Below, one piece after another: positions 24,873-64,000 of a stretch of 64,000 nt of DNA (position 1 is the stretch's first letter; each line of letters begins with the position of its first letter). Source of the DNA: Streptomyces sp. NA04227. Lineage in GTDB: Bacteria; Actinomycetota; Actinomycetes; Streptomycetales; Streptomycetaceae. Location: positions 3,709,001 through 3,773,000 of the forward strand of contig NZ_CP054918.1 of NCBI RefSeq assembly GCF_013364195.1, in the 5' to 3' direction. Under the pieces are notes generated by a model. The model was not told the DNA's origin. It saw nothing but the letters and a program-made list of their open reading frames with translations, and ran no database searches. Made by a program: the position numbers and the translations under genes.

Positions 24873-25261
24873 AAACCGGAAGCCCGGCCGAGGGCGAGAA
24901 CCCGGAAGACCCACCCGGGGAGGGCGGGTCTCCCGGGCCTCGGCAATTCGGTACGTAGGGCCCAGAATTCGGGAAGCGGTACCCCCCACGCATCTACGCG
25001 AGTAACATCCGGCGGAGGTCCGGCACGCTCGCCCGCTCCCCACCGTCTCGCCCAACTTGCCCCCGCATCAGCGCAGTTGAGGCCGTATCAGCGAGTTTCC
25101 ACGTGCCACTCGAATTTAATACGTATCCGTAGTCGGCCCCCCCTTATAGGAACGCGACAACATTGAACGTAAGTTCCATGCACCGGTCCGTCCAGGGTGG
25201 CGCCGGCGTCACCTCGCCGTCATACCGCCGGACAGCCTCGCACGGAAAGATCGACGGATAC
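24873..25261. other. Intergenic region upstream of the orphan solute-binding protein
   Basis: Contains the monooxygenase terminator and then, from about 25060 to 25160, an AT-richer stretch (GAATTTAATACGTATCC, CCTTATAGGAAC) that is the likely promoter region of the lipoprotein gene. No gene is seen. Confidence 0.65.
24908..24930. terminator. Hairpin downstream of the monooxygenase gene
   Basis: GACCCACCC pairs with GGGCGGGTC (one mismatch) around a 5-base loop, 36 bases after the monooxygenase stop. Confidence 0.6.
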
Positions 25262-26845
25262 ATGCGCGTGTTCAGCCCGGTTCGTATGCGGCAGATAGCT
25301 GTGTTGGCCACTCTGTCCCTGACCGCGGTCGCCGGGTGCTCCGTGCTCTCCTCGGGCGAGGGGGACGAGACCATCACCGTCGGCACCACCAGCGCGCCGA
25401 CCACCCTCGATCCCGCGGCCTCCTGGGACAACTCCTGGGAGCTGTTCCGCAACATCTACCAGACCCTGCTCAGCTACCCCTCCGGCGCGACGGCCCCGCA
25501 GCCCGACGCCGCCGAGGGCTGCGACTTCACCGACAGCACCAACCGTGTGTACCGGTGCGAGCTGCGCGAGGGCCTGAAGTTCTCCAACGGGCACGAGCTG
25601 GACGCGAAGGCGGTCAAGTACTCCATCGACCGCATCGGGCGGATCAAGGCCGACGGCGGTCCGCAGGGTCTGCTCGGCAGCCTGGAGCGGGTCGAGGCCG
25701 AGGACGAGCGCACCGTCACCTTCCACCTCAACAAGCCGGACGCCACCTTCCCGTTCGTGCTCGCCACCCCGGCCATGTCGATCGTCGACCCGAAGGAGTA
25801 CCCGGCGGGCAAGGTCCGCAAGGGCAAGACGATCCAGGGCTCGGGCCCGTACACCCTCGAGACCTACGAGGAGGGCAAGCGGGCGGTCCTGGCGAGGAAC
25901 GGTTCGTACAAGGGCTACGCGGACCGCAAGAACGACGGCGTGACCATCCGCTACTACACGGACTCCGCCGCGATGATCGGCGCCCTGCGCAAGAAGCAGA
26001 TCGACGTGACCTACCGCGGTCTGGCCGCCGAGGACATCGTCGCGCTGCAGACCAACAGCGGCGACGAGAGCCTCCAACTCGTCGAGGGCTCGGGCACCGA
26101 GGTGCGCTACCTCGCCTTCAACCCGGAGCACCCGTGGGCGAGCAAGCCCGCCGTGCGCAAGGCCATCGCGCAGATCCTGGACCGCGGCGGCATCGCGCAC
26201 AAGATCTACAAGGACACCGTCGAGTCGCTCTACTCGATGGTGCCGCGCGGCCTCGTCGGGCACGCCACCACCTACTTCGACGTGTACGGCAACCCGGACC
26301 CCGCGAAGGCGAAGAAGATCCTGAGGGACGCCGGGATCAACAAGCCGGTGCCGCTGACGTTCTGGCACACCACCGACCGCTACGGCTCGCAGACCAAGAT
26401 CGAGTTCGAGGAGATCAAGCGGCAGCTCAACGAGACCGGCCTGTTCGAGGTGAAGGTCGAGAGCCGCCCGTGGAAGGAGTACTCGGAGGGGCTGCACAAG
26501 GGCAAGTACCCGGCGGTGGGCAACAGTTGGTTCCCCGACTTCCCCGACGCGGAGAACTTCATCGCCCCGTTCGTCGGCGAGGAGAACGCGCTCGGCATCC
26601 CGTACAAGGCTCCCGAGATCACCGACAAGATCCTGCCCAAGTCCCGCCGTGAGACCGACCGTACGGCCCTGGCGGACCAGTTCAAGAAGGCCCAGAAGAT
26701 CCTGGTCGACGACGCCCGGATGATGCCGCTGTGGCAGGGCAAGCAGTACATCGCCGCGAGCGAGGACATCTCCGGCGGGGAGCGGGCCCTGGACCCGTCG
26801 ACGATCATGATCATGTGGGAGCTGGGGCGTAAGACGAGCTGGTAG
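25262..26845 (+). CDS. Family 5 extracellular solute-binding lipoprotein (peptide/opine type), orphan
   Basis: A 527-residue SBP_bac_5 protein (OppA/DppA type). The signal has a lipobox VAGC with the lipidated Cys at residue 26. Family markers include LREGLKFSNGHELDAKAVKYSIDR and the C-terminal NSWFPDFPDAENF. It should bind peptides, nickel or similar ligands at the cell surface for an ABC importer. No permease or ATPase genes follow, so it either uses a distant importer or acts as a sensor protein. ATG at 25262 is chosen for the signal peptide; the frame extends 33 codons upstream without a good ribosome site. Confidence 0.9.
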   Translation: MRVFSPVRMRQIAVLATLSLTAVAGCSVLSSGEGDETITVGTTSAPTTLDPAASWDNSWELFRNIYQTLLSYPSGATAPQPDAAEGCDFTDSTNRVYRCELREGLKFSNGHELDAKAVKYSIDRIGRIKADGGPQGLLGSLERVEAEDERTVTFHLNKPDATFPFVLATPAMSIVDPKEYPAGKVRKGKTIQGSGPYTLETYEEGKRAVLARNGSYKGYADRKNDGVTIRYYTDSAAMIGALRKKQIDVTYRGLAAEDIVALQTNSGDESLQLVEGSGTEVRYLAFNPEHPWASKPAVRKAIAQILDRGGIAHKIYKDTVESLYSMVPRGLVGHATTYFDVYGNPDPAKAKKILRDAGINKPVPLTFWHTTDRYGSQTKIEFEEIKRQLNETGLFEVKVESRPWKEYSEGLHKGKYPAVGNSWFPDFPDAENFIAPFVGEENALGIPYKAPEITDKILPKSRRETDRTALADQFKKAQKILVDDARMMPLWQGKQYIAASEDISGGERALDPSTIMIMWELGRKTSW

Positions 26846-26984: not shown

Positions 26985-27890
26985 TCAGACCGCTCCCGGT
27001 CCCCACTCCTCCACCACGAGCGAATCGCCGACCTTCAGGCGGCCGCCGCGCAGTACGGCGAACTTGGCACCGAACGCGACCCCGCCGCTCTCCGCCCTGC
27101 GGTAGTCGGCGAGGGTGCGCAGTGGTTCGACGCCCGCCTTGACCCCGGCCGCCTGGTCGACGGTGGTGACCGCGCACCGGATGCACGGCTTGGACCAGCC
27201 CCACAGGGTGTCGCCCGCCCGGACGCGGCGGACGCGGTCCTCGGTGTGCGGCTCGTCCCAGCCGTCCACCACGATGTTGGGGCGGAAGCGGTTCATCGGC
27301 AGCGGCGCCTCGTCCCTCTTGGCCAGCCACTCCTGGAGCAGGTCCAGCGAGGAGCGCGAGACCATCATCAGCGCGGTGCTGTCGGCGTAGCCGGAGGTGC
27401 CGGGGGTGGCGCCATCGGTCACCCGGTCGTGCTCCGGCGGTACCCGCACGAGCCTGCTCGCCCCGCCGAGCACCTCGCTCAGCCAGGCCGCGGCCTCGTC
27501 GCCCTGGTCGATGCCCTGGAACGGGTTCTTGAACAGGGTGACGTCGCGGCGGGCACCCTCGGTGTCCACGTCGATCGTCAGCGGCTCGATGCCGGGGGCT
27601 TCGAGGGTGAGGCGGTCGGGGGCGGGAGCCGACGCGAGGTCAACCGATCCGTCCGGTACGGGAGTTGAGGCGTCGGGCGACGGCACGGCCAAGGTCGTGG
27701 CGCTGGTGACCGTCGGCCGGACGACGGCAAGGCGCGGGTCGCGGCGCTGACTGCGGAAGACACCCGCCTCGTCGGTCACCATGAACGACCGGTCGTGCCG
27801 CAGCCCGGCGGCGGTCAGCTCGGCCGCGCGCAGCGACGTACCGGCACAGCCCTTGATCGGATAGCTCACAAGCTCGACTATTTCGGCCAC
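26985..27890 (-). CDS. MOSC domain protein (mARC/YcbX-like molybdenum enzyme)
   Basis: A 301-residue protein with the MOSC N-terminal beta-barrel (about 1-120) and the MOSC domain (about 150-300). NRFRPNIVV (200-208) and WSKPCIRCAVTTVD (232-245) are the motifs of mARC/YcbX proteins, in which a Cys ligates molybdenum cofactor; Cys236 and Cys239 are candidates. Such enzymes reduce N-hydroxylated compounds (amidoximes, hydroxylaminopurines). An additional low-complexity stretch near 65-92 (SPDASTPVPDGSVDLASAPA) is unusual. The GTG start has a weak ribosome site. Convergent with the solute-binding protein gene. Confidence 0.88.
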   Translation of the reverse strand: MAEIVELVSYPIKGCAGTSLRAAELTAAGLRHDRSFMVTDEAGVFRSQRRDPRLAVVRPTVTSATTLAVPSPDASTPVPDGSVDLASAPAPDRLTLEAPGIEPLTIDVDTEGARRDVTLFKNPFQGIDQGDEAAAWLSEVLGGASRLVRVPPEHDRVTDGATPGTSGYADSTALMMVSRSSLDLLQEWLAKRDEAPLPMNRFRPNIVVDGWDEPHTEDRVRRVRAGDTLWGWSKPCIRCAVTTVDQAAGVKAGVEPLRTLADYRRAESGGVAFGAKFAVLRGGRLKVGDSLVVEEWGPGAV

Positions 27891-55189: not shown

Positions 55190-56320
55190 CTACCGAGCCG
55201 CCTCGGCCGCGTCGGCCGCTCCGGCCTGCCCGCCGCCGAACACCTCCTTGACGAGCCTTTGCGTCGCCTTCTGGAACGCCTCTCCCATGGACAGTGCGGC
55301 GTCGTCGACATAGTTCAGCGCGGCGGTCAGGGTCCTGCTGCCGTCGGGCGTGCTGTACATCAGCGCCGCGTGGCCCGCCATGCCGCCGTTGTGGGTGATG
55401 ACGGTGCCGCCGTTTTCGCCCGCGTCCTGCACGAACACCCCTAGTCCGTAGCCGACCTTGGGATGCGGCTCGCACATCTCGGCCAGCAGCGGGGCCGGCA
55501 GGAGCTTGCCGCCCATCAGCGCGGAGATGAACGTGTGGAGGTCCCGGGTCGTGGAGATCATGTCTCCGCCGGTGGAGATCCAGGAGGGGTTCTGGCGGGT
55601 GACGTCGACGGTCTTCTCCCGGCCGGTGTCCTCGTACCGGTAGTAGGCGTGGGCGTGCGGCTCGGAGATCTCCGGGTCGGTCTCCGGCGCGACGGTGTCC
55701 GACAGCCCGAGCGGCCCCAGGATCAGCCGCCGCATCTCCTCGGCGAGCGAGTGGCCGGTAACCTTCTCGATCAGCAGCCTGGCCAGCACGTAGTTGGTGT
55801 TGGAGTAGCTCCAGTCCGTCCCCGGCTCAAACCGCGCCGGCTTGGACAACGCCAGCCGTACCAGCTCTTCGGGCCGGTAGGTCCTGAACCGGTTGTCCAC
55901 CCACTCCTGGCCCGCGGTCGTGGCGGGGATCCCCGGCGCGAAGGTCCCGTCGTCGTAGTACTCGCCGGTGAAGTTGAACACCCCGCTGGTGTGCTGCAGC
56001 AGCATCCGCACCGTGATCCTCGGGTCCAGCCCGAATCCCGGCAGGTGGTCGGCCACCGGGTCGTCCAGCGCGATCGGGCCCTCGGCCACCAGTCGCAGCA
56101 CCACGGTCGCGGTGAAGGTCTTGGTGTTGCTGCCTATCCGGACGTGTCCGTTGCTCGGCGGCTTCGCGGTCTCGCCCAGCTTGCGCACCCCGGCGCTGCC
56201 GACCCACTCGCCTCGCTCGTCGTGCACGCGCATCGTCACCCCGGTGAAACCGGATTCGACCATCTCCTCGATGGCCTTCCGCAGCTCCGGGCGGTCCTGG
56301 TCGGTAAGAGTGAGGGACAT
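55190..56320 (-). CDS. Beta-lactamase-family (class C-like) serine hydrolase
   Basis: A 376-residue serine beta-lactamase-fold protein. Motifs: SxxK as GSNTKTF (Ser near residue 64), YxN as WSYSNTNY, and the KTG-equivalent ITHNGG near 310. It is in the range of esterases and D-alanyl-D-alanine carboxypeptidases of streptomycetes. No signal peptide is seen, so the role is probably a cytoplasmic esterase or peptidase. ATG at 56320 has GAGGAG about 9 bases upstream. It is followed on the same strand by no gene; the DUF4097 gene upstream is 72 bases away and could be co-transcribed with it. Confidence 0.88.
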   Translation of the reverse strand: MSLTLTDQDRPELRKAIEEMVESGFTGVTMRVHDERGEWVGSAGVRKLGETAKPPSNGHVRIGSNTKTFTATVVLRLVAEGPIALDDPVADHLPGFGLDPRITVRMLLQHTSGVFNFTGEYYDDGTFAPGIPATTAGQEWVDNRFRTYRPEELVRLALSKPARFEPGTDWSYSNTNYVLARLLIEKVTGHSLAEEMRRLILGPLGLSDTVAPETDPEISEPHAHAYYRYEDTGREKTVDVTRQNPSWISTGGDMISTTRDLHTFISALMGGKLLPAPLLAEMCEPHPKVGYGLGVFVQDAGENGGTVITHNGGMAGHAALMYSTPDGSRTLTAALNYVDDAALSMGEAFQKATQRLVKEVFGGGQAGAADAAEAAR

Positions 56321-56392
56321 GGTGGTGGGCTCCTCGAGAACTGTCACGGAAGGGATTTCAGCTGAGCGGAAGGGCGTCGCGGGGTGCCCCGC

Positions 56393-57232: not shown

Positions 57233-57258
57233 AATGAATCAAGAGTGAACGCTATCCT
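57229..57258 (+). promoter_or_regulatory. Promoter of the MarR-family gene
   Basis: TTGCAA (-35, 57229-57234) and TATCCT (-10, 57253-57258), 18-base spacer. Transcription would begin near 57265, which favours the ATG at 57290 over the GTG at 57245. The -35 overlaps one GTTGC half-site. Confidence 0.7.
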
Positions 57259-57289
57259 GGAGACACCACGGACCACGAAGGAGACCGCG

Positions 57290-58027
57290 ATGCCGGGAGG
57301 CAGACTCACCCAGCAGGAACGCCAGCAGATCGCGCTGGGACTGGCGGACGGCCTCGCCTACGCGGAGATCGCCAGACGTCTCGACCGCCCGACCTCGACG
57401 GTCACGCGTGAGGTGATGCGCAACGGCGGCCCCACCGCCTACCGCGCCGACCTCGCCCACCGCGCCACCGAACACCGCGCCCACCGCCGCAGAAAGGCCG
57501 TGCCCCCGGATCCCCACACGCCCCCGCAGGCCCACGGGCGCGATGCCGACGCCGTACGCGAGTACGAGGAGACGTTCACCACCGTCTTCATGCAATCGGG
57601 CCTGCCCAAGATGACGGCCCGGGTGCTGGTCGGCCTGTACACCACCGACGCCGGCAGCCTCACCGCCTCCGAACTCGCCGGGCGACTTCAGATCAGCCCG
57701 GCTTCCGTCTCCAAAGCGGTCACGTTCCTCGAAAGCCAGGGCCTCATCCGCCGGGAGCGCGACGACCGCCGCCGCGAGCGCTACGTCGTCGACGACGACG
57801 TCATGTACCAATCCACGATGGCCAGCGCCCGCGCCACCGCCCACCTCGGCGAGGTCGCCCGGCAGGGCGTCGGCATCCTCGGCACGGGCACCCCGGCCGC
57901 CGCCCGCCTGGAGAACATCGCGCGCTTCGTCGACTTCGTCTCCGAGAGCATCGCCCGCGCCGCGGACCAGGCCCGCGAGATCCTCCACACGAAACCCGAG
58001 AAAACGGCCTCGGACGGCCCTGACTGA
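57290..58027 (+). CDS. MarR-family regulator with N-terminal helix-turn-helix of IS30-like type
   Basis: A 245-residue protein with two DNA-binding parts. Residues 1-55 (GGRLTQQERQQIALGLADGLAYAEIARRLDRPTSTVTREV) form a helix-turn-helix of the HTH_38/IS30 type. Residues about 100-210 are a MarR winged helix (SGLPKMTARVLVGLYTTDAGSLTASELAGRLQISPASVSKAV). ATG at 57290 has AAGGAG 6 bases upstream and lies downstream of the mapped promoter. It probably binds the GTTGC/GCAAC repeats and represses both itself and DUF4097. Confidence 0.88.
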   Translation: MPGGRLTQQERQQIALGLADGLAYAEIARRLDRPTSTVTREVMRNGGPTAYRADLAHRATEHRAHRRRKAVPPDPHTPPQAHGRDADAVREYEETFTTVFMQSGLPKMTARVLVGLYTTDAGSLTASELAGRLQISPASVSKAVTFLESQGLIRRERDDRRRERYVVDDDVMYQSTMASARATAHLGEVARQGVGILGTGTPAAARLENIARFVDFVSESIARAADQAREILHTKPEKTASDGPD

Positions 58028-58133: not shown

Positions 58134-61100
58134 TCACCGCGCCCGGTAAACATTGAGCGGGGACAGGCCGTTCGGGCCCGCCTGGACTCCGCCCACGGTC
58201 GGGCTGACCGGGTAGACCGGGCGCGGCACGTACATCGGGACCGCCGCCGAGGCGGCGAGGACCCGGTCGTTCACCTCGGCCCACCGGTCCCCGGCCTCGG
58301 CGAGGTCTTCCGTGGCGTAGGCCTCGTCGATGCTCCGGTCCACGGCGGGGTCCTTCAGCCGCGCGTAGTTGGCGGTGTTCGGGGCGGTGAGGCGGCCGTC
58401 GAAGAGGACGGGGAGCAGGGCGGAGGCGACGGGGGCGTCCGGGAGGTAGCCGACCTGGAAGAAGTGGAAGTCGCCCGCGGCTGCCCTGCGGTAGTACTCG
58501 CCCGCCTCGACGTCCTCGACGGTGACCTCGAAGCCCGCCTTGCGCAGCGCGGCGGAGACCACCTCGGTGGTGGCGGTCGAGTCGGGCGTACGCATGCGGG
58601 GCAGGGTGATGCGGTAGCCGTCCTCGCCCGCCGATTCGAGCAGCTGCCGGGCGGCCTCCGTGTCCCCGCTGCCGGGGCCGTCCGGGTCCGCCTGGTCGGA
58701 CGGCTGCCCGCCGCGCAGGCCCGGCGGGATCAGGCTGTGGTGGCGCTTGCCCGTGTCGCCGGTCGCGCGCATGACGTCGTCGGCGGGGAGCGCGGTGAGC
58801 AGGGCCTGCCGTACCCGCTCGTCCTTCACCTTCTGCGTGTTGACCATGTAGTACTTCACGTACGACGCCTCGGCGGCGAGGCGGCCGTTCTTGTCGGCGC
58901 CGGTGTTCGAGGCCGAGCTCTTGGAGAGCATCCCGGTGAAGGTCATCAGGGGGTCGGTGCCGGTGCCGGTGGCGGCACGGATCCGGTACTCGATCTGCGG
59001 GGCGGGCTGCATCAGGCTGATCTCGTAACGGTCCGGGTAGGCCGTGCGCAGGGGATCGGTCTTCGCGTCCCACCGGGAGTTGCGTACGAGGACGGCCTTC
59101 TGCCCGGGAGTGATGCTCTCGGTCCGGTAAGGCCCGCTGCTGGGCGGGTTCTTGGCGCCGCCCGGCTTCTGGGTGAAGGAGACCGGTACCGGGGCCGTCG
59201 AGAAGTCGGTCAGCACGGCGTTGAAGTCGTGGTGCGGCTGGGCGAGGCGGAAGACGATCGTACGGTCGTCCGGGGTACGCATCACGGTCTCGGCGCTGAC
59301 CTCGGTGGAGCCGAAGCCACCCGTGTTGGAGGCGCCGAGCAGGAACAGCCGCAGGGTGCTGCTGCCGGTGCCGTCCGGGCCGAGGGTGCGCTCGATCCCG
59401 TGCCGGATGTCCGCCGACCGGATCGGCGTACCGTCCGCGTACTTCAGCCCCGGCTTCAGCCGGAAGGTCCACGTCCGGCCGCCGTCGGAGGACTTGCCCG
59501 CGTCCTCGGCGAGGTCGCCGACCACCTTGACCGTGCCGTCCGGCGCCGTCTTCAGGCCCGTCAGGGAGCGGTGGGTGAGGCCCATGACGGCCCGCTCGGT
59601 GTTGTCGATGACCGCGGCGGGGTCCAGCGTGGCGAGGTCACCGGGTTCCAGGACGCCGATCGTGCCGCCGGGCTCGGCCGCGCGTACGGCGGGCGCGGGG
59701 CCCCGGGAGTCCTCGGCGGTGCCGACGCTCAGGGTCTCGGTCCTGGCCGCCTTCGCCACCTCTCCCGGGGTGCCCTTCCCGTCGTCATCGGGATTGGCGC
59801 CCTTGTCACCCTTGTCACCCTTGTCGCCCTGGGAGTTGTCGTCCGAGCCGCCGTCGCCGGAGAAGAGGGAAAGTCCGTCGAAGGGCTGCACGACGGCGAC
59901 GGTTCCGACTCCCGCCACCAGGGCGGCGGTTACTCCGAGGGCGGCCCAGCGTCGCCGGTTGCGCGCGGCGCCTCGGGGTCGGGTGCCGGGGCCCGGGGGG
60001 AGGGTGGGGCCGCCCAGGGTGGCTGGGCCCGGGGTGGCCGTAACCGGGGTGTGCGTAACCGGGGTGGATGCGCTCAGGGCGGCCGCGCCGGGAGTGGAGG
60101 GCGGGGCAGGTGGGAGCGGGGGCGGTGCCGTTCCTGCGGAGGGGGCTGTGGGAACGGCGGCGTTCGCGGGCTGGGGTGGGGGCGGGCCGTACCCGGCCGG
60201 AGTCGGAGTCGGGGCCGGGGCCGCGGTGGGGGCTGGGGTCGGGGCCGGTCCGTTGCCGGGCAGGGGTGGAGCGAGCAGGAAGGCGCCGGTATCGGTGTTG
60301 CTGTTGGTGGTGTTGGTGTCGCTGTGGTTGTCCGCGGCCTTGGGAGTCGGGGACTTGGGAGTCGGGGGTGCGTGCGCGGGCGCGGGTGGGGCCGGGGGCT
60401 TGTCCGTGACGCCGGGGGTGGCGGGGGCCGCCGGGCCCGGTTCCCGCTGGGCGTCGGTGGCCAGGGCCTCGAGGGCGGCCTGTGCGTGGCGGGCGTCGGG
60501 GCGCTGGTCGATGTCCTTGGCGAGCATCCCGCGTACGAGGTTGTCCCAGGCGGGCGCGAGGCCGGGGCGCCGCGCGGAGGGCGGGCCCGGGGTCTCGTAG
60601 ACGTGGGCGTGCATCAGGGCCACCGCCGAGCCGCTGTCGAAGGGCGGGGCGCCGGTGAGCATTTGGTGGACCATGCAGCCGAGGGCGTAGACGTCGGTAC
60701 CGCCGTCGTCGCCCTGGCCGGTGAACCGCTCCGGGGCCATGTAGTGCAGGGTGCCGACGGGCGCGTCCCCGGAGGAGGTCAGATAGCCGGGGGCGGTCGT
60801 CGCGTCCACGAACTTCGCCACTCCGAAGTCGAGGATCTTGACCGTGTCCTCCCCGGTCACCATCACGTTCGCCGGCTTGATGTCCCGGTGCACGATCCCG
60901 GCCGCGTGCGCCGTCGCGAGCGCACGGCAGACCTGGGCACCGATGGTCGCCACCTGCCGCAGCGGCAACGGCCCCGAGGCGGCCAGCAGATCCCCCACCG
61001 TGCTGCCCGCGATCAGCGGCATCACCAGATAGGGCACGTCCTCGTGCATACCGTGGTCAAAGACCGGCACGATGTACGAGCTGTCCAGCGCCGCCGCGGC

Positions 61101-61292
61101 CCGCGCCTCGCGGACGAACATGGCGAGCAGCCGTTCCCGCGTCTCACCCCCGGTGCCCTGCGGCACGCTGAGCAGTTTGACGGCGACCCGCCGCCCGAGC
61201 CGGGTGTCCTCGGCCCGCCACACCTGCCCCATGCCGCCCGCACCGATCCGGTCCAGGAGCTCATAGCGCCCGTCCAGCACCGCGCCCTGCAT
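58134..61292 (-). CDS. Transmembrane Ser/Thr protein kinase fused to a family 5 solute-binding domain
   Basis: A 1052-residue protein with four parts. Residues 10-275 are a complete Hanks-type kinase: G-loop GAGGMG (17-22), Lys39 (AVK), HRDIKPAN (135-142), DFG (155-157) and APE (186-188). Residues 280-440 are a Pro/Ala/Thr-rich linker. A single helix spans about 449-469, then a collagen-like run GDKGDKGDKG (489-498) and, from about 540 to the end, a complete OppA/DppA-like solute-binding domain (VIDNTERAVMGLTHRSL, LKPGLKYADGTPI, GYLPDAPVAS). With the kinase in the cytoplasm this makes a receptor kinase whose external domain could bind peptides. GGAGG lies 5 bases before the ATG. Confidence 0.92.
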   Translation of the reverse strand: MQGAVLDGRYELLDRIGAGGMGQVWRAEDTRLGRRVAVKLLSVPQGTGGETRERLLAMFVREARAAAALDSSYIVPVFDHGMHEDVPYLVMPLIAGSTVGDLLAASGPLPLRQVATIGAQVCRALATAHAAGIVHRDIKPANVMVTGEDTVKILDFGVAKFVDATTAPGYLTSSGDAPVGTLHYMAPERFTGQGDDGGTDVYALGCMVHQMLTGAPPFDSGSAVALMHAHVYETPGPPSARRPGLAPAWDNLVRGMLAKDIDQRPDARHAQAALEALATDAQREPGPAAPATPGVTDKPPAPPAPAHAPPTPKSPTPKAADNHSDTNTTNSNTDTGAFLLAPPLPGNGPAPTPAPTAAPAPTPTPAGYGPPPPQPANAAVPTAPSAGTAPPPLPPAPPSTPGAAALSASTPVTHTPVTATPGPATLGGPTLPPGPGTRPRGAARNRRRWAALGVTAALVAGVGTVAVVQPFDGLSLFSGDGGSDDNSQGDKGDKGDKGANPDDDGKGTPGEVAKAARTETLSVGTAEDSRGPAPAVRAAEPGGTIGVLEPGDLATLDPAAVIDNTERAVMGLTHRSLTGLKTAPDGTVKVVGDLAEDAGKSSDGGRTWTFRLKPGLKYADGTPIRSADIRHGIERTLGPDGTGSSTLRLFLLGASNTGGFGSTEVSAETVMRTPDDRTIVFRLAQPHHDFNAVLTDFSTAPVPVSFTQKPGGAKNPPSSGPYRTESITPGQKAVLVRNSRWDAKTDPLRTAYPDRYEISLMQPAPQIEYRIRAATGTGTDPLMTFTGMLSKSSASNTGADKNGRLAAEASYVKYYMVNTQKVKDERVRQALLTALPADDVMRATGDTGKRHHSLIPPGLRGGQPSDQADPDGPGSGDTEAARQLLESAGEDGYRITLPRMRTPDSTATTEVVSAALRKAGFEVTVEDVEAGEYYRRAAAGDFHFFQVGYLPDAPVASALLPVLFDGRLTAPNTANYARLKDPAVDRSIDEAYATEDLAEAGDRWAEVNDRVLAASAAVPMYVPRPVYPVSPTVGGVQAGPNGLSPLNVYRAR

Positions 61293-61569
61293 CTGTTCCT
61301 CCCCCGAGCGAGCGGCGATTCGCCGCTCCCGCGGACAACCTACCCAGTACGGGGCGGCCACGGACGGCCGACGCCCGCCGCACGCACGGCAGTTGACGCC
61401 CGGCAGCCGTATCCGGGAATGATCTTCGCGGCCTTCCTTCAAGCCACGAGGGTCACCAGGCCCAGGCCGGTACTGGAGGATCACCAGGCCGGTTCCAGGA
61501 ACCACGTCCGCTCGGAAACCGATCCCCCTCCGGGCCTCATCCCCTTCCGGGCCTCATCCCCTCGGAGCC

Positions 61570-63855
61570 TCAGTCCCTCGGAACCCCCGGGATCTCCCGC
61601 GCCAGCTCGTCCCGTACCTGCCTCGCCACCTTGTACGTGTCCCCCTCGGCACGCTCGGCCAGTCGGCCCGGGTTGTCGAGCCAGCCCCGTTCGACGGTGT
61701 ACCAGTCGACAGGCGTGGGCTCGGTGCCGTCCTCAAGGGACTGGGCGAGGGTGTCGAAGTAGGTCTTCCAGCGCAGGCGGTACAGGCCGCGAGTGAGGCC
61801 CGCCCACTCGCGGTTGGCGTAGTCGTGGAGCTTGCCGGTGCCGGAGTGGGCACGGGCTCCCCAGGTGGTGAGCAGGGTGAGGGCGTCCTCCTGGAGGCGG
61901 TCGCGTTCGGCGTCGTCGGCGCCCCAGGCGCGGGCCTCGGCGACCCAGCGGCCGAGGAGGTGGTCCCGGTCAGTGGCCGCGAGCAGGTCGAGCAGGTCGA
62001 TACGGTCCAGCCAGATGCCGGTGAGCCGGTCGAAGGCGGCGCGGTCGGCGTCGTCGTAGGCCTTCTTGATCCAGGGGAGCAGGAGGCGGCTGTCGTTGGC
62101 GAGGCACTGGCGGGCGACGTCGAACAGGTCGCGGCGGTAGGCGGTGGAGCCGCGCAGTGCGAGTGCCACGTCGAGCAGGGCGTCCAAGGCCCGGGCCAAC
62201 TCCACGCCGTCGTACCGCAGTTGCTTCGGTGACCAGCTCGCCGCGCGGGTGACCGTCAGGCTCGGGCGGGCGGCGAAGAGGGAGTCGGCGGGCTCGCTCC
62301 AGCGGTCGGCGCGGGTGGTGCCGTAGGCCGAGCGGCGCAGCAGGTCCCAGGCTTCGGCGGCCTTGCGGTCGGCGGCACCGTAGCGGGAGAGCGCGTACTG
62401 CGAGAACCAGTCGGTGAGGTCGGGGCTCTGCTCGGTCCACGGCAGCTCGGAGAAGAGCTGGAGGGCGACCGGGTTGTTGTCGGCGGCCTCCGGCATCAGC
62501 GCGATGCCGGACATCGTGCTGCCCTCGCGGCCGAGCCAGGAGTGGTAAAGGGCCGCCCAGTCGGGGGTGTTGGCGCCGAGCGCGGTGTGGCCGCCGAAGT
62601 TGAAGATCGAGCCGAAGGCGTACGGCGTGCCCAGCCAGTCCCCCTCCCGGTCCGTCACCTCGGGGAAACGGTCCGAAAGGCCGTCCAGGACAAGGACCTT
62701 GGCCCGGTCGGCCGCACCGAGGAGCTCCTTCGTCGGGTTCTTCTGCCAGCCGAGAATCGCCCAAAGGGCTTCCGGGTGCGCGGAGTTGAGCGCACCCTGC
62801 ACCCCGTGTACCGCGTCCGCCACCGGTACGTCACCCGGGTCGCCGCCCTCGTGCAGCAGGTCCATCTTGTACAGCGTGGAGGCGCCGAAGAGTTCCGCGT
62901 GAATGCGGTAGTAGGCGGCGGCGACGCGGCGGAAGTGGTCGCCCCGCGGGTCGAGCCAGTCCGGGCGCGGGAATTCGGCCCAGGTGCCCTGCGGGACGAG
63001 ATGGGCGCCCGGATTGCGGTCGGCGAAGCCGGGCGGGACGGTGCCGAAGTAGCCCGGGAAGACCGGGGTCATACCGAGCTCGCGCAGCCGGTCGCAGATA
63101 CGGCGGCCGAGCGCGGCCCGCCGGTCGAGAAGCTGCCGCGAGACCGGACCCCCGAACGCCGACATGTTCTGCAGCAGCCACCACGGCTGGTGGGCCGGGC
63201 CCGGGATCCAGGCGAGGAGTTCGCCGTCGCTGTAGCCGAACTCCTGGAAGAGGCGGTGGTAGACGGCGTCGGCACCGGCGTAGACGAGCACCTCGTTGTA
63301 GCCGTGCAGCGCGAGGGTGTCGATCTCGCGCTCCCAGTAGTCCCAGTCACGGTACGGGCCGGTGTAGCCGTCGTTGGTGTCGTTCAGGACGAACCGGTGC
63401 GGGACGTTCGCGGAGCGCGCGAGCGGGGTGGGCACGGCGGGCAACCGGTCCGGCAGGGCGTCCAGCTGGTCACCGGCCCAGGTCAGGCTCGCGCGTGCGG
63501 TGTGCGCGAGGTACCAGTACATCCCGCGCAGCCGCACCGCCGCCGTCGTCCCCTCCACCAGAATCGCGCCCTCGCCCCCCGACACCCGGAACGCGTCCCG
63601 TCCGGTACGGGCGGACGGCAGCGCACGGAAGGTGAACTGGTCCCAGTGCCGGGGCAGCAGACGGCGGGCGGCACGTACGTCGGCGTCCGTCGCCGACGAC
63701 GGCAGCGGGCGCGGCTTGGCGTCACCTGCCGCCGGGTCCGGTCCGCCGCCGCTCCCGTCCTCCCTGGCGAGAGTGAAGGCGCCGAGCGCCGCGGCGGAGG
63801 CAGCCGTCGCGACGGTGGCGGCGGCGCAGACGAAGGCGCGGCGCTTCATGGGCAT
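61570..63855 (-). CDS. Tat-exported GH89 alpha-N-acetylglucosaminidase
   Basis: A 761-residue protein with a twin-arginine signal (MPMKRRAFV, followed by an Ala-rich helix). The GH89 catalytic region includes RFVLNDTNDGYTGPYRDWDYWEREIDTLALHGYNEVLVYAG, GMTPVFPGYFGTVPP, YKMDLLHEGG with a catalytic Glu candidate, and LMPEAADNNPVALQLFSELPW with the second. Enzymes of this family release terminal alpha-linked GlcNAc; human NAGLU and bacterial CpGH89 are relatives. Length is normal. ATG at 63855 has AGGAGG 5 bases upstream. About 280 bases of intergenic DNA separate it from the kinase gene. Confidence 0.9.
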   Translation of the reverse strand: MPMKRRAFVCAAATVATAASAAALGAFTLAREDGSGGGPDPAAGDAKPRPLPSSATDADVRAARRLLPRHWDQFTFRALPSARTGRDAFRVSGGEGAILVEGTTAAVRLRGMYWYLAHTARASLTWAGDQLDALPDRLPAVPTPLARSANVPHRFVLNDTNDGYTGPYRDWDYWEREIDTLALHGYNEVLVYAGADAVYHRLFQEFGYSDGELLAWIPGPAHQPWWLLQNMSAFGGPVSRQLLDRRAALGRRICDRLRELGMTPVFPGYFGTVPPGFADRNPGAHLVPQGTWAEFPRPDWLDPRGDHFRRVAAAYYRIHAELFGASTLYKMDLLHEGGDPGDVPVADAVHGVQGALNSAHPEALWAILGWQKNPTKELLGAADRAKVLVLDGLSDRFPEVTDREGDWLGTPYAFGSIFNFGGHTALGANTPDWAALYHSWLGREGSTMSGIALMPEAADNNPVALQLFSELPWTEQSPDLTDWFSQYALSRYGAADRKAAEAWDLLRRSAYGTTRADRWSEPADSLFAARPSLTVTRAASWSPKQLRYDGVELARALDALLDVALALRGSTAYRRDLFDVARQCLANDSRLLLPWIKKAYDDADRAAFDRLTGIWLDRIDLLDLLAATDRDHLLGRWVAEARAWGADDAERDRLQEDALTLLTTWGARAHSGTGKLHDYANREWAGLTRGLYRLRWKTYFDTLAQSLEDGTEPTPVDWYTVERGWLDNPGRLAERAEGDTYKVARQVRDELAREIPGVPRD

Positions 63856-64000
63856 GGGGGCCTCCTGACGTGTATTGGCGGGTGGGGATGGATGCTGCTC
63901 TGTACTGACTTGACGTTGGGTGCATATGTTGACGCGGATATGTACTGCTTGATGCAGGTAGTCAATGATGGACAGCAATGATCGTTAGTTGACTGATTAA

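What the first reader, a model, noticed from the sequence alone, without database searches (positions are those of the whole stretch)
58134..61292. A Ser/Thr receptor kinase whose extracellular sensor is a whole OppA-like solute-binding protein
Seen: one uninterrupted 1052-codon frame with a complete Hanks kinase (all catalytic motifs), a Pro-rich linker, one membrane helix, a collagen-like GDK run and a full family 5 solute-binding domain. Known: bacterial receptor kinases usually carry PASTA, NHL or short sensors; SBP_bac_5 proteins normally feed ABC importers. Inference: peptide or similar ligand binding outside the cell could directly control kinase activity, a combination I do not recall as characterised. 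The solute-binding part is complete at both ends, so it is not a remnant.
Basis: partly seen in the sequence, partly recalled or inferred. Interest (0 to 1): 0.78.

Follow-up and report, generated by a model that had tools for sequence, protein, structure and literature searches.

The report
Receptor kinase with OppA-like outer domain
This Streptomyces gene makes one protein that joins an intracellular signalling kinase to a complete nutrient-binding protein that probably lies outside the cell; such fusions were already mentioned in print, but this type arose at least twice and its binding site is altered in most relatives, so what it senses is an open, testable question.

Summary
On the minus strand (61292 to 58134) one frame of 1052 codons encodes a complete PknB-like Hanks kinase, a disordered linker, one predicted membrane helix and a full family 5 solute-binding protein (SBP), nearest in structure to Streptomyces clavuligerus OppA2. 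It is no frameshift: 66 database clusters share the architecture (every organism named is Streptomyces). It is rare: 8 of 392 Streptomyces genomes, a lower bound. No ABC-transporter gene was found within about 10 kb. Novelty is only partly right: PMC6069109 (2018) already mentions kinase and SBP domains in one polypeptide. Found here: a second family (B) joined an unrelated kinase to the same SBP type independently. Nearly all free relatives, and family B, keep the Trp and acidic residue that anchor a peptide N-terminus; 66 of 67 family A sequences lack both, and the window protein keeps the Asp, with Tyr for Trp. The family A site is thus remodelled and 'peptide' is not a safe guess. Best reading: a ligand-sensing receptor kinase, ligand unknown, regulation untested. 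Purifying selection on the outer domain is shown between close relatives, not for the window's own lineage.

The parts
58134..61292 (-). whole gene: receptor-like Ser/Thr kinase with C-terminal SBP_bac_5 domain, 1052 aa plus stop
   Evidence: start by comparison with homologues
60441..61292 (-). Hanks kinase domain, residues 1-284, PknB-like, presumably cytoplasmic
59946..60440 (-). disordered Pro/Ala-rich juxtamembrane linker, residues 285-449
   Evidence: translation; pLDDT under 50 nearly throughout
59889..59945 (-). single predicted transmembrane helix, residues 450-468, basic residues on the kinase side
   Evidence: hydropathy; not resolved by AlphaFold2 (pLDDT under 50)
59775..59888 (-). 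short linker with the GDK run, residues 469-506
   Evidence: pLDDT under 50 nearly throughout
58137..59774 (-). outer OppA2-type solute-binding domain, residues 507-1052, incl. the DSRGPAPAV segment shared with free lipoprotein SBPs
58437..58448 (-). Y949-L-P-D952: positions equivalent to OppA Trp416 and Asp419 (peptide N-terminus anchor)
   Evidence: alignment to 1b05 and 2wok; counts

Best explanation
The gene encodes a single-pass membrane receptor kinase. The N-terminal PknB-like kinase lies in the cytoplasm and the C-terminal OppA2-type solute-binding protein is tethered outside, in place of the lipid anchor of its free relatives. The most likely working is that a small ligand closes the two lobes of the outer domain, which changes the pairing or spacing of receptors and so the autophosphorylation of the kinases inside. 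Shown by computation: the domains and their completeness, one hydrophobic helix, conservation of the fusion, purifying selection on the outer domain between close relatives, and a second independent fusion of the same domain type. Inferred: membrane topology, ligand binding, and coupling across a long disordered linker. The ligand is unknown. For the window protein a peptide or amino acid with a free amine stays possible (D952 kept); for most of the family a different ligand is likelier.
For: Complete kinase and SBP by Pfam and by fold. 66 clusters with the same architecture among the 120 listed of 1286 hits; HRD motif in 65 of 66 and one hydrophobic helix in 65 of 66. Between close members the outer domain is constrained about like the kinase: L001-L081 dN/dS 0.0174/0.139 outer, 0.0084/0.111 kinase; L001-L083 0.095/0.449 and 0.094/0.358. 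The same SBP type was joined to an unrelated kinase independently. No ABC gene among the neighbouring frames scanned within about 10 kb on either side (5, 1, 9, 10), and no neighbour gene shared by the four fusion loci compared, whereas two free relatives in the same genome sit with Opp permease and ATPase genes. Precedent: GlnH, a solute-binding protein, is linked to PknG activity through GlnX (PMC6069109, abstract and passages).
Against: No binding, localisation or kinase assay exists here. 66 of 67 family A sequences lack both anchor residues of peptide binding, which could also mean loss of ligand binding. Constraint is not shown for the window's own outer domain: against distant members its dN/dS is high (e.g. 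0.54/0.76 with L001, 0.49/0.57 with L008, dS near saturation), its branch on the SBP tree is long (0.9 against 0.21 on the kinase tree), and I found no close relative to test. The linker between kinase and helix is about 165 disordered residues, which does not favour rigid signal transfer. The helix rests on hydropathy only.
Confidence: 0.6

Rival explanations
1. The outer domain no longer binds a small solute; it is a protein-protein contact module (wall, transporter or another receptor) that positions the kinase.
For: 66 of 67 family A sequences lack both Trp and Asp of the peptide anchor, and 26 further positions that are at least 80% uniform in free SBPs have another majority residue in family A, e.g. 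Y to S/A at P0003 713, R to V/G at 803, G to S/T at 1030. The window's outer domain evolves fast.
Against: The two-lobed fold is complete and confident; several changed positions are rather uniform inside family A (G in 54 of 67 at the Asp position, S in 55 of 67 at 1030), which looks more like a new site than decay; the window protein keeps the free-type residue at 8 of the 28 positions, the Asp among them; family B keeps Trp and an acidic residue in 4 of 4.
Confidence: 0.22
2. A tethered SBP that works with an Opp-type ABC importer, so that the kinase reports on transport rather than on the free ligand.
For: Two free relatives in the same genome lie with opp genes; the genome has 17 SBP_bac_5 match stretches, some of them pieces of one frame, so partner permeases exist.
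Against: No ABC gene among the neighbouring frames scanned and no neighbour gene shared by the four fusion loci; the site is remodelled relative to the free SBPs.
Confidence: 0.13
3. Artefact: two neighbouring genes joined by a sequencing error or a chance open frame in GC-rich DNA.
For: High GC gives long chance frames here, such as the antisense frame 58464-61796.
Against: 66 clusters carry the same fusion; 8 of 392 genus genomes have it in one frame with no stop inside.
Confidence: 0.01

Closest known systems
SBP-domain Ser/Thr kinases such as MSMEG_1200/StpK7 (mentioned in PMC6069109; NCBIfam NF052427)
   Same: Hanks kinase and solute-binding domain in one polypeptide, reported for Mycobacterium and Streptomyces (passage).
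   Different: NF052427 is 601 positions long, too short for a family 5 SBP plus kinase (inference from length); the window protein scores 193.5 bits against a cut-off of 900. StpK7 acts in a phage-susceptibility gene island (passage of the review PMC13355554), a context not seen here.
PknG-GlnH-GlnX of mycobacteria
   Same: A solute-binding protein feeds a nutrient signal to a Ser/Thr kinase (PMC6069109, passages).
   Different: Three separate proteins with GlnH as an amino-acid binder. Here one protein with a family 5 binder.
OppA2 of Streptomyces clavuligerus (2WOK, 2WOP)
   Different: OppA2 is free, without a kinase; it has W..D at the anchor where the window has Y..D and 66 of 67 family A sequences have neither residue.
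PASTA kinases (PknB, PrkC, StkP)
   Different: Outer part is an SBP, no PASTA repeat found; NF033483 292 bits against cut-off 450.

Membership tests
Hanks-type Ser/Thr kinase | PF00069 over its cut-off | tested here: met
   152.3 bits, cut-off 31.7
Hanks-type Ser/Thr kinase | VAIK Lys, alphaC Glu, HRD, Asn, DFG, APE | tested here: met
   all present, invariant in 57 aligned members (HRD and DFG)
Hanks-type Ser/Thr kinase | phosphorylates Ser/Thr | not testable with these tools
   needs an in vitro assay
transmembrane receptor kinase | one membrane helix between kinase and outer sensor | tested here: inconclusive
   single hydrophobic segment 450-468 in the window protein; one segment in 65 of 66 family members; hydropathy only, topology not tested
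family 5 solute-binding proteins (OppA/DppA) | PF00496 over its cut-off, two-lobed fold | tested here: met
family 5 solute-binding proteins (OppA/DppA) | own export signal with lipobox, as a free protein | tested here: not met
   lipobox pattern around the start of the match (100 residues before to 30 after) in 0 of 9 fusions and 24 of 24 free SBPs among the loci; the domain is tethered through the kinase protein
family 5 solute-binding proteins (OppA/DppA) | Trp416/Asp419 peptide anchor | tested here: inconclusive
   window: Tyr949 and Asp952; family A 0 of 67 Trp, 1 of 67 Asp; family B 4 of 4 Trp and 4 of 4 acidic; free 127 of 129 Trp, 123 of 129 Asp. Role of Asp419: passage in PMC5736914
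family 5 solute-binding proteins (OppA/DppA) | works with an ABC permease | tested here: inconclusive
   none among the neighbouring frames scanned; a distant partner cannot be excluded
StpK7/MSMEG_1200 (NF052427) | curated score cut-off | tested here: not met
   193.5 bits against 900
PASTA kinase (NF033483) | curated score cut-off and PASTA repeats | tested here: not met
   292 against 450; no PASTA hit
anti-phage kinases of PADLOC (PD-T4-6, mad6) | match beyond the kinase and adjoining linker | tested here: not met
   in the 25 of 34 families shown for the window protein the best stretch lies within residues 1-381; the other 9 were not shown

The most novel reading that the evidence does not exclude
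Streptomyces has twice turned a peptide-transport binding protein into the sensor of a receptor kinase. In family B the original peptide site was kept; in family A it was rebuilt for a new ligand, perhaps a small secreted metabolite or a peptide without a free amine, so that family A is a set of dedicated external chemoreceptors that control Ser/Thr phosphorylation directly, with no part in uptake.
Probability: 0.33. Interest if true: 0.68.

Novelty: new variant of a known kind. Interest (0 to 1): 0.47.

Why it matters
PMC6069109 calls the stimuli of bacterial protein kinases an outstanding question (abstract). Here the sensor is a whole ligand-binding protein of a well-studied fold with a solved relative, so ligand screens, structures and chimeras are straightforward. 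Two independent fusions that differ in whether they kept the ancestral peptide site give a natural comparison of how a transport protein becomes a receptor.

Tried and rejected
Frameshift or chance frame: rejected. Anti-phage kinase: the PADLOC hits shown stay within the kinase and adjoining linker and say nothing special. Operon with ABC or other partner genes: none found. Operon with the upstream NAGLU gene: 277 bp apart, and nothing like NAGLU near three other fusion genes. An earlier tblastn of the neighbours returned nothing for L002 although L002 holds the fusion, and missed the fusion's own kinase in L008; I do not rely on it for neighbours. Kinase plus another SBP type for P0069, suspected from its NCBI name: Pfam gave no SBP hit for P0069 or P0075, so I do not claim it. 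Third independent fusion for L147: on the kinase tree it joins family B (97/86); on the SBP tree it stands just outside B in the best tree, but holding them together is not rejected (AU p 0.06), so it is counted in B. Rfam: nothing in the window. Promoter and terminator scans: nothing.

Literature: ten searches, of which 48 and 81 were about OppA, found no functional study of a kinase fused to a family 5 SBP in the held open-access library. I saw passages only, of PMC9602780, PMC11303876, PMC6069109, PMC13355554, PMC12363180, PMC6213207, PMC5736914 and PMC6305025. Most subscription papers are not held, so this is not proof of absence.

Limits: the trees are of method 'quick' except the kinase tree. 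The motif counts use 63 of the 66 family A clusters (P0063, P0064, P0065 left out) plus 4 genome loci, and include close relatives, so they are not 67 independent cases. A2, used for genome searches, has 5 rows; divergent family A members such as P0066-P0068 may fall under the 1e-125 cut-off, so 8 of 392 is a lower bound. On holding the report against the calls I lowered the main confidence from 0.62 to 0.60 and raised the contact-module rival from 0.20 to 0.22, because constraint on the window's own outer domain is not shown.

Full report
The gene. From the ATG at 61292 it has 1052 codons. A longer GTG frame (1123 codons) exists, but homologues begin at the same M[RQ]G.VLDGRY and a GGAGGAA stands just upstream of the ATG. 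Long frames on the other strand (58464-61796) are what DNA of about 73% GC gives by chance.

The protein. Pfam finds a complete kinase and a complete SBP_bac_5 domain. The AlphaFold2 model, built from 57 family members, is confident in the SBP domain and most of the kinase and not in the kinase activation loop or residues 285-506. Foldseek and VIA-align place the kinase with PknB and the outer domain with OppA2 of S. clavuligerus, crystallised with bradykinin and with arginine; sequence alone says the same. The only hydrophobic segment is 450-468, with basic residues on the kinase side. The membrane helix is thus likely but unproven.

A family. One search lists 120 of 1286 hits; 66 of them (P0003-P0068) have this architecture by precomputed Pfam domains, and each of these rows that names an organism names Streptomyces. 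The HRD motif is in 65 of 66 and one hydrophobic helix in 65 of 66; P0064, whose N-terminus is missing, lacks the first and P0043 the second. I call this family A. By genome search with the outer-domain alignment at E 1e-125, 8 of 392 genus genomes hold it, each in one frame of 942-1139 codons that also holds the kinase; in the order 4 of 197 genomes, all in the same genus; in the class 3 of 296 matched, two of the genus and one a 608-codon free SBP in another family. These draws overlap. In an earlier draw of 150 genus genomes at the looser 1e-90, 125 matched; of the 30 best loci fetched, 5 stood apart at over 500 bits and carry the family A kinase, 1 (L087) carries another kinase, and 24 are free SBPs with a lipobox.

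Selection. Between close members (L001, L081, L083) the outer domain is under purifying selection about like the kinase. Between distant members it diverges much faster (window against L001: 46% against 72% identity), with dN/dS of 0.70 outer and 0.29 kinase at dS near saturation. No close relative of the window gene was found, so constraint on its own outer domain is not shown. The pattern fits a sensor whose specificity shifts, and does not exclude relaxed constraint in the window's lineage.

Origin. Free lipoprotein SBPs share with the fusions not only the fold but also the DSxGPAP segment before the first strand, so the outer domain descends from a lipoprotein of this group whose signal peptide was replaced by kinase, linker and helix (inference). 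Two such free relatives in the own genome lie beside Opp permease and ATPase genes.

A second fusion. Locus L087 holds a 989-codon frame with PF00069 and PF00496. A homology search (120 of 857 hits listed) shows only two other full-length relatives, P0124 (S. tuirus) and P0125 (named only 'Actinomycetota bacterium Odt1-20B'); after these come free SBPs (up to 55% identity), and for the kinase part Streptomyces kinases at up to 62%, many with PF13845. L147 adds a fourth member. On the kinase tree families A and B are apart, and holding them together is rejected (AU p 2e-26). On the outer-domain tree B nests among free SBPs and A is a separate clade. So the same type of SBP was fused to a Hanks kinase at least twice. 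Genome G278 carries both.

The binding site. One search aligns the family to OppA (1b05) and OppA2 (2wok) and places two family positions on chain residues Trp416 and Asp419 of OppA. PMC5736914 (passage) says that Asp419 bonds the amine of the peptide's first residue; PMC6305025 (docking and simulation; passages) also lists Trp416. One search counts: Trp in 127 of 129 free SBPs, 4 of 4 family B, 0 of 67 family A; Asp in 123 of 129 free SBPs, Asp or Glu in 4 of 4 family B (1 Asp, 3 Glu), and Asp in 1 of 67 family A. The one is the window protein, with Tyr949 and Asp952. Most of family A has Met, Val or Leu and Gly there. In all, 28 positions that are at least 80% uniform in free SBPs have another majority residue in family A; family B keeps the free type at most of them, and the window protein at 8. 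This tells against the simple reading that family A senses peptides as OppA does. It leaves a new ligand, or no ligand. The window protein, with its Asp, is the one family A sequence for which an amine-bearing ligand remains most plausible.

Context. The neighbours are NAGLU (61570-63978, same strand), a MarR/HTH protein (57245-58027) and a beta-lactamase-fold protein (55190-56347). Further out lie an alpha/beta hydrolase, an extracellular M7 protease, a LysR regulator and a PhoX phosphatase on one side, and an S1-domain protein, a HATPase_c_2 protein, a DUF5753 regulator, a release-factor-like protein and a DUF4097 protein on the other; no ABC component among the frames scanned. Comparing all frames of 80 codons or more around four fusion genes (window with about 10 kb on each side, L001, L002, L008), the only match outside the fusion gene itself was a second kinase near the L008 fusion. 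The gene is one of 47 kinase match stretches in this genome; among the 29 other own kinases in the tree, the one grouped with family A (own_L116, support 93) carries PQQ/beta-propeller matches in its C-terminal part.

What is known. [quoted passage not shown] The paper links GlnH and GlnX to PknG. PMC9602780 (passage) counts Ser/Thr kinases among receptors activated by separate SBPs. Database labels such as 'serine/threonine protein kinase/ABC-type transport system substrate-binding protein' show the architecture is known to annotation pipelines. So the kind is known. The family 5 variant, its two origins and the rebuilt site were not found in the searches I could run (listed under Tried and rejected).

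Verdict. Real, intact, conserved but rare; a new variant of a known kind. That ligand binding controls the kinase is the best explanation, and it is untested.

Noticed in passing
L087 (G008:C1), L147 (G278:C1), P0123-P0125: A second, independently formed kinase-SBP_bac_5 fusion family that keeps the peptide-anchor residues (4 of 4).
   Followed up: yes
P0072, P0076, P0082: Proteins of about 1890 aa with kinase and AAA domains plus SBP_bac_5 (two SBP stretches in P0072); a different architecture, not followed beyond Pfam.
   Followed up: partly
window 25163-26845 +: A separate SBP_bac_5 protein (255 bits); the next frame scanned, 26985-27890 -, encodes a MOSC protein, not an ABC component.
   Followed up: partly
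window 61570-63978 -: A three-domain alpha-N-acetylglucosaminidase (NAGLU) directly upstream of the kinase gene on the same strand.
   Followed up: no
window 57245-58027 +: Regulator with HTH_38 and MarR domains, convergent with the kinase gene.
   Followed up: no
L152 5659-6318 - and 6816-7868 +: An extracellular M7 neutral protease and a LysR regulator next to each other, about 8 kb upstream of the kinase gene and about 6 kb beyond the window end; a possible peptide source nearby, but not shared by the other fusion loci.
   Followed up: no
L014, L016, L017, L020, L027, L038: Six Brevibacterium free SBPs have Gly at the Asp419 position but keep the Trp.
   Followed up: no
P0069, P0075: NCBI names them bifunctional kinase/ABC transporter substrate-binding protein, yet Pfam finds no SBP domain.
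   Followed up: partly
L008 18786-21575 +: A second kinase gene some 7 kb from the fusion gene of S. physcomitrii.
   Followed up: no
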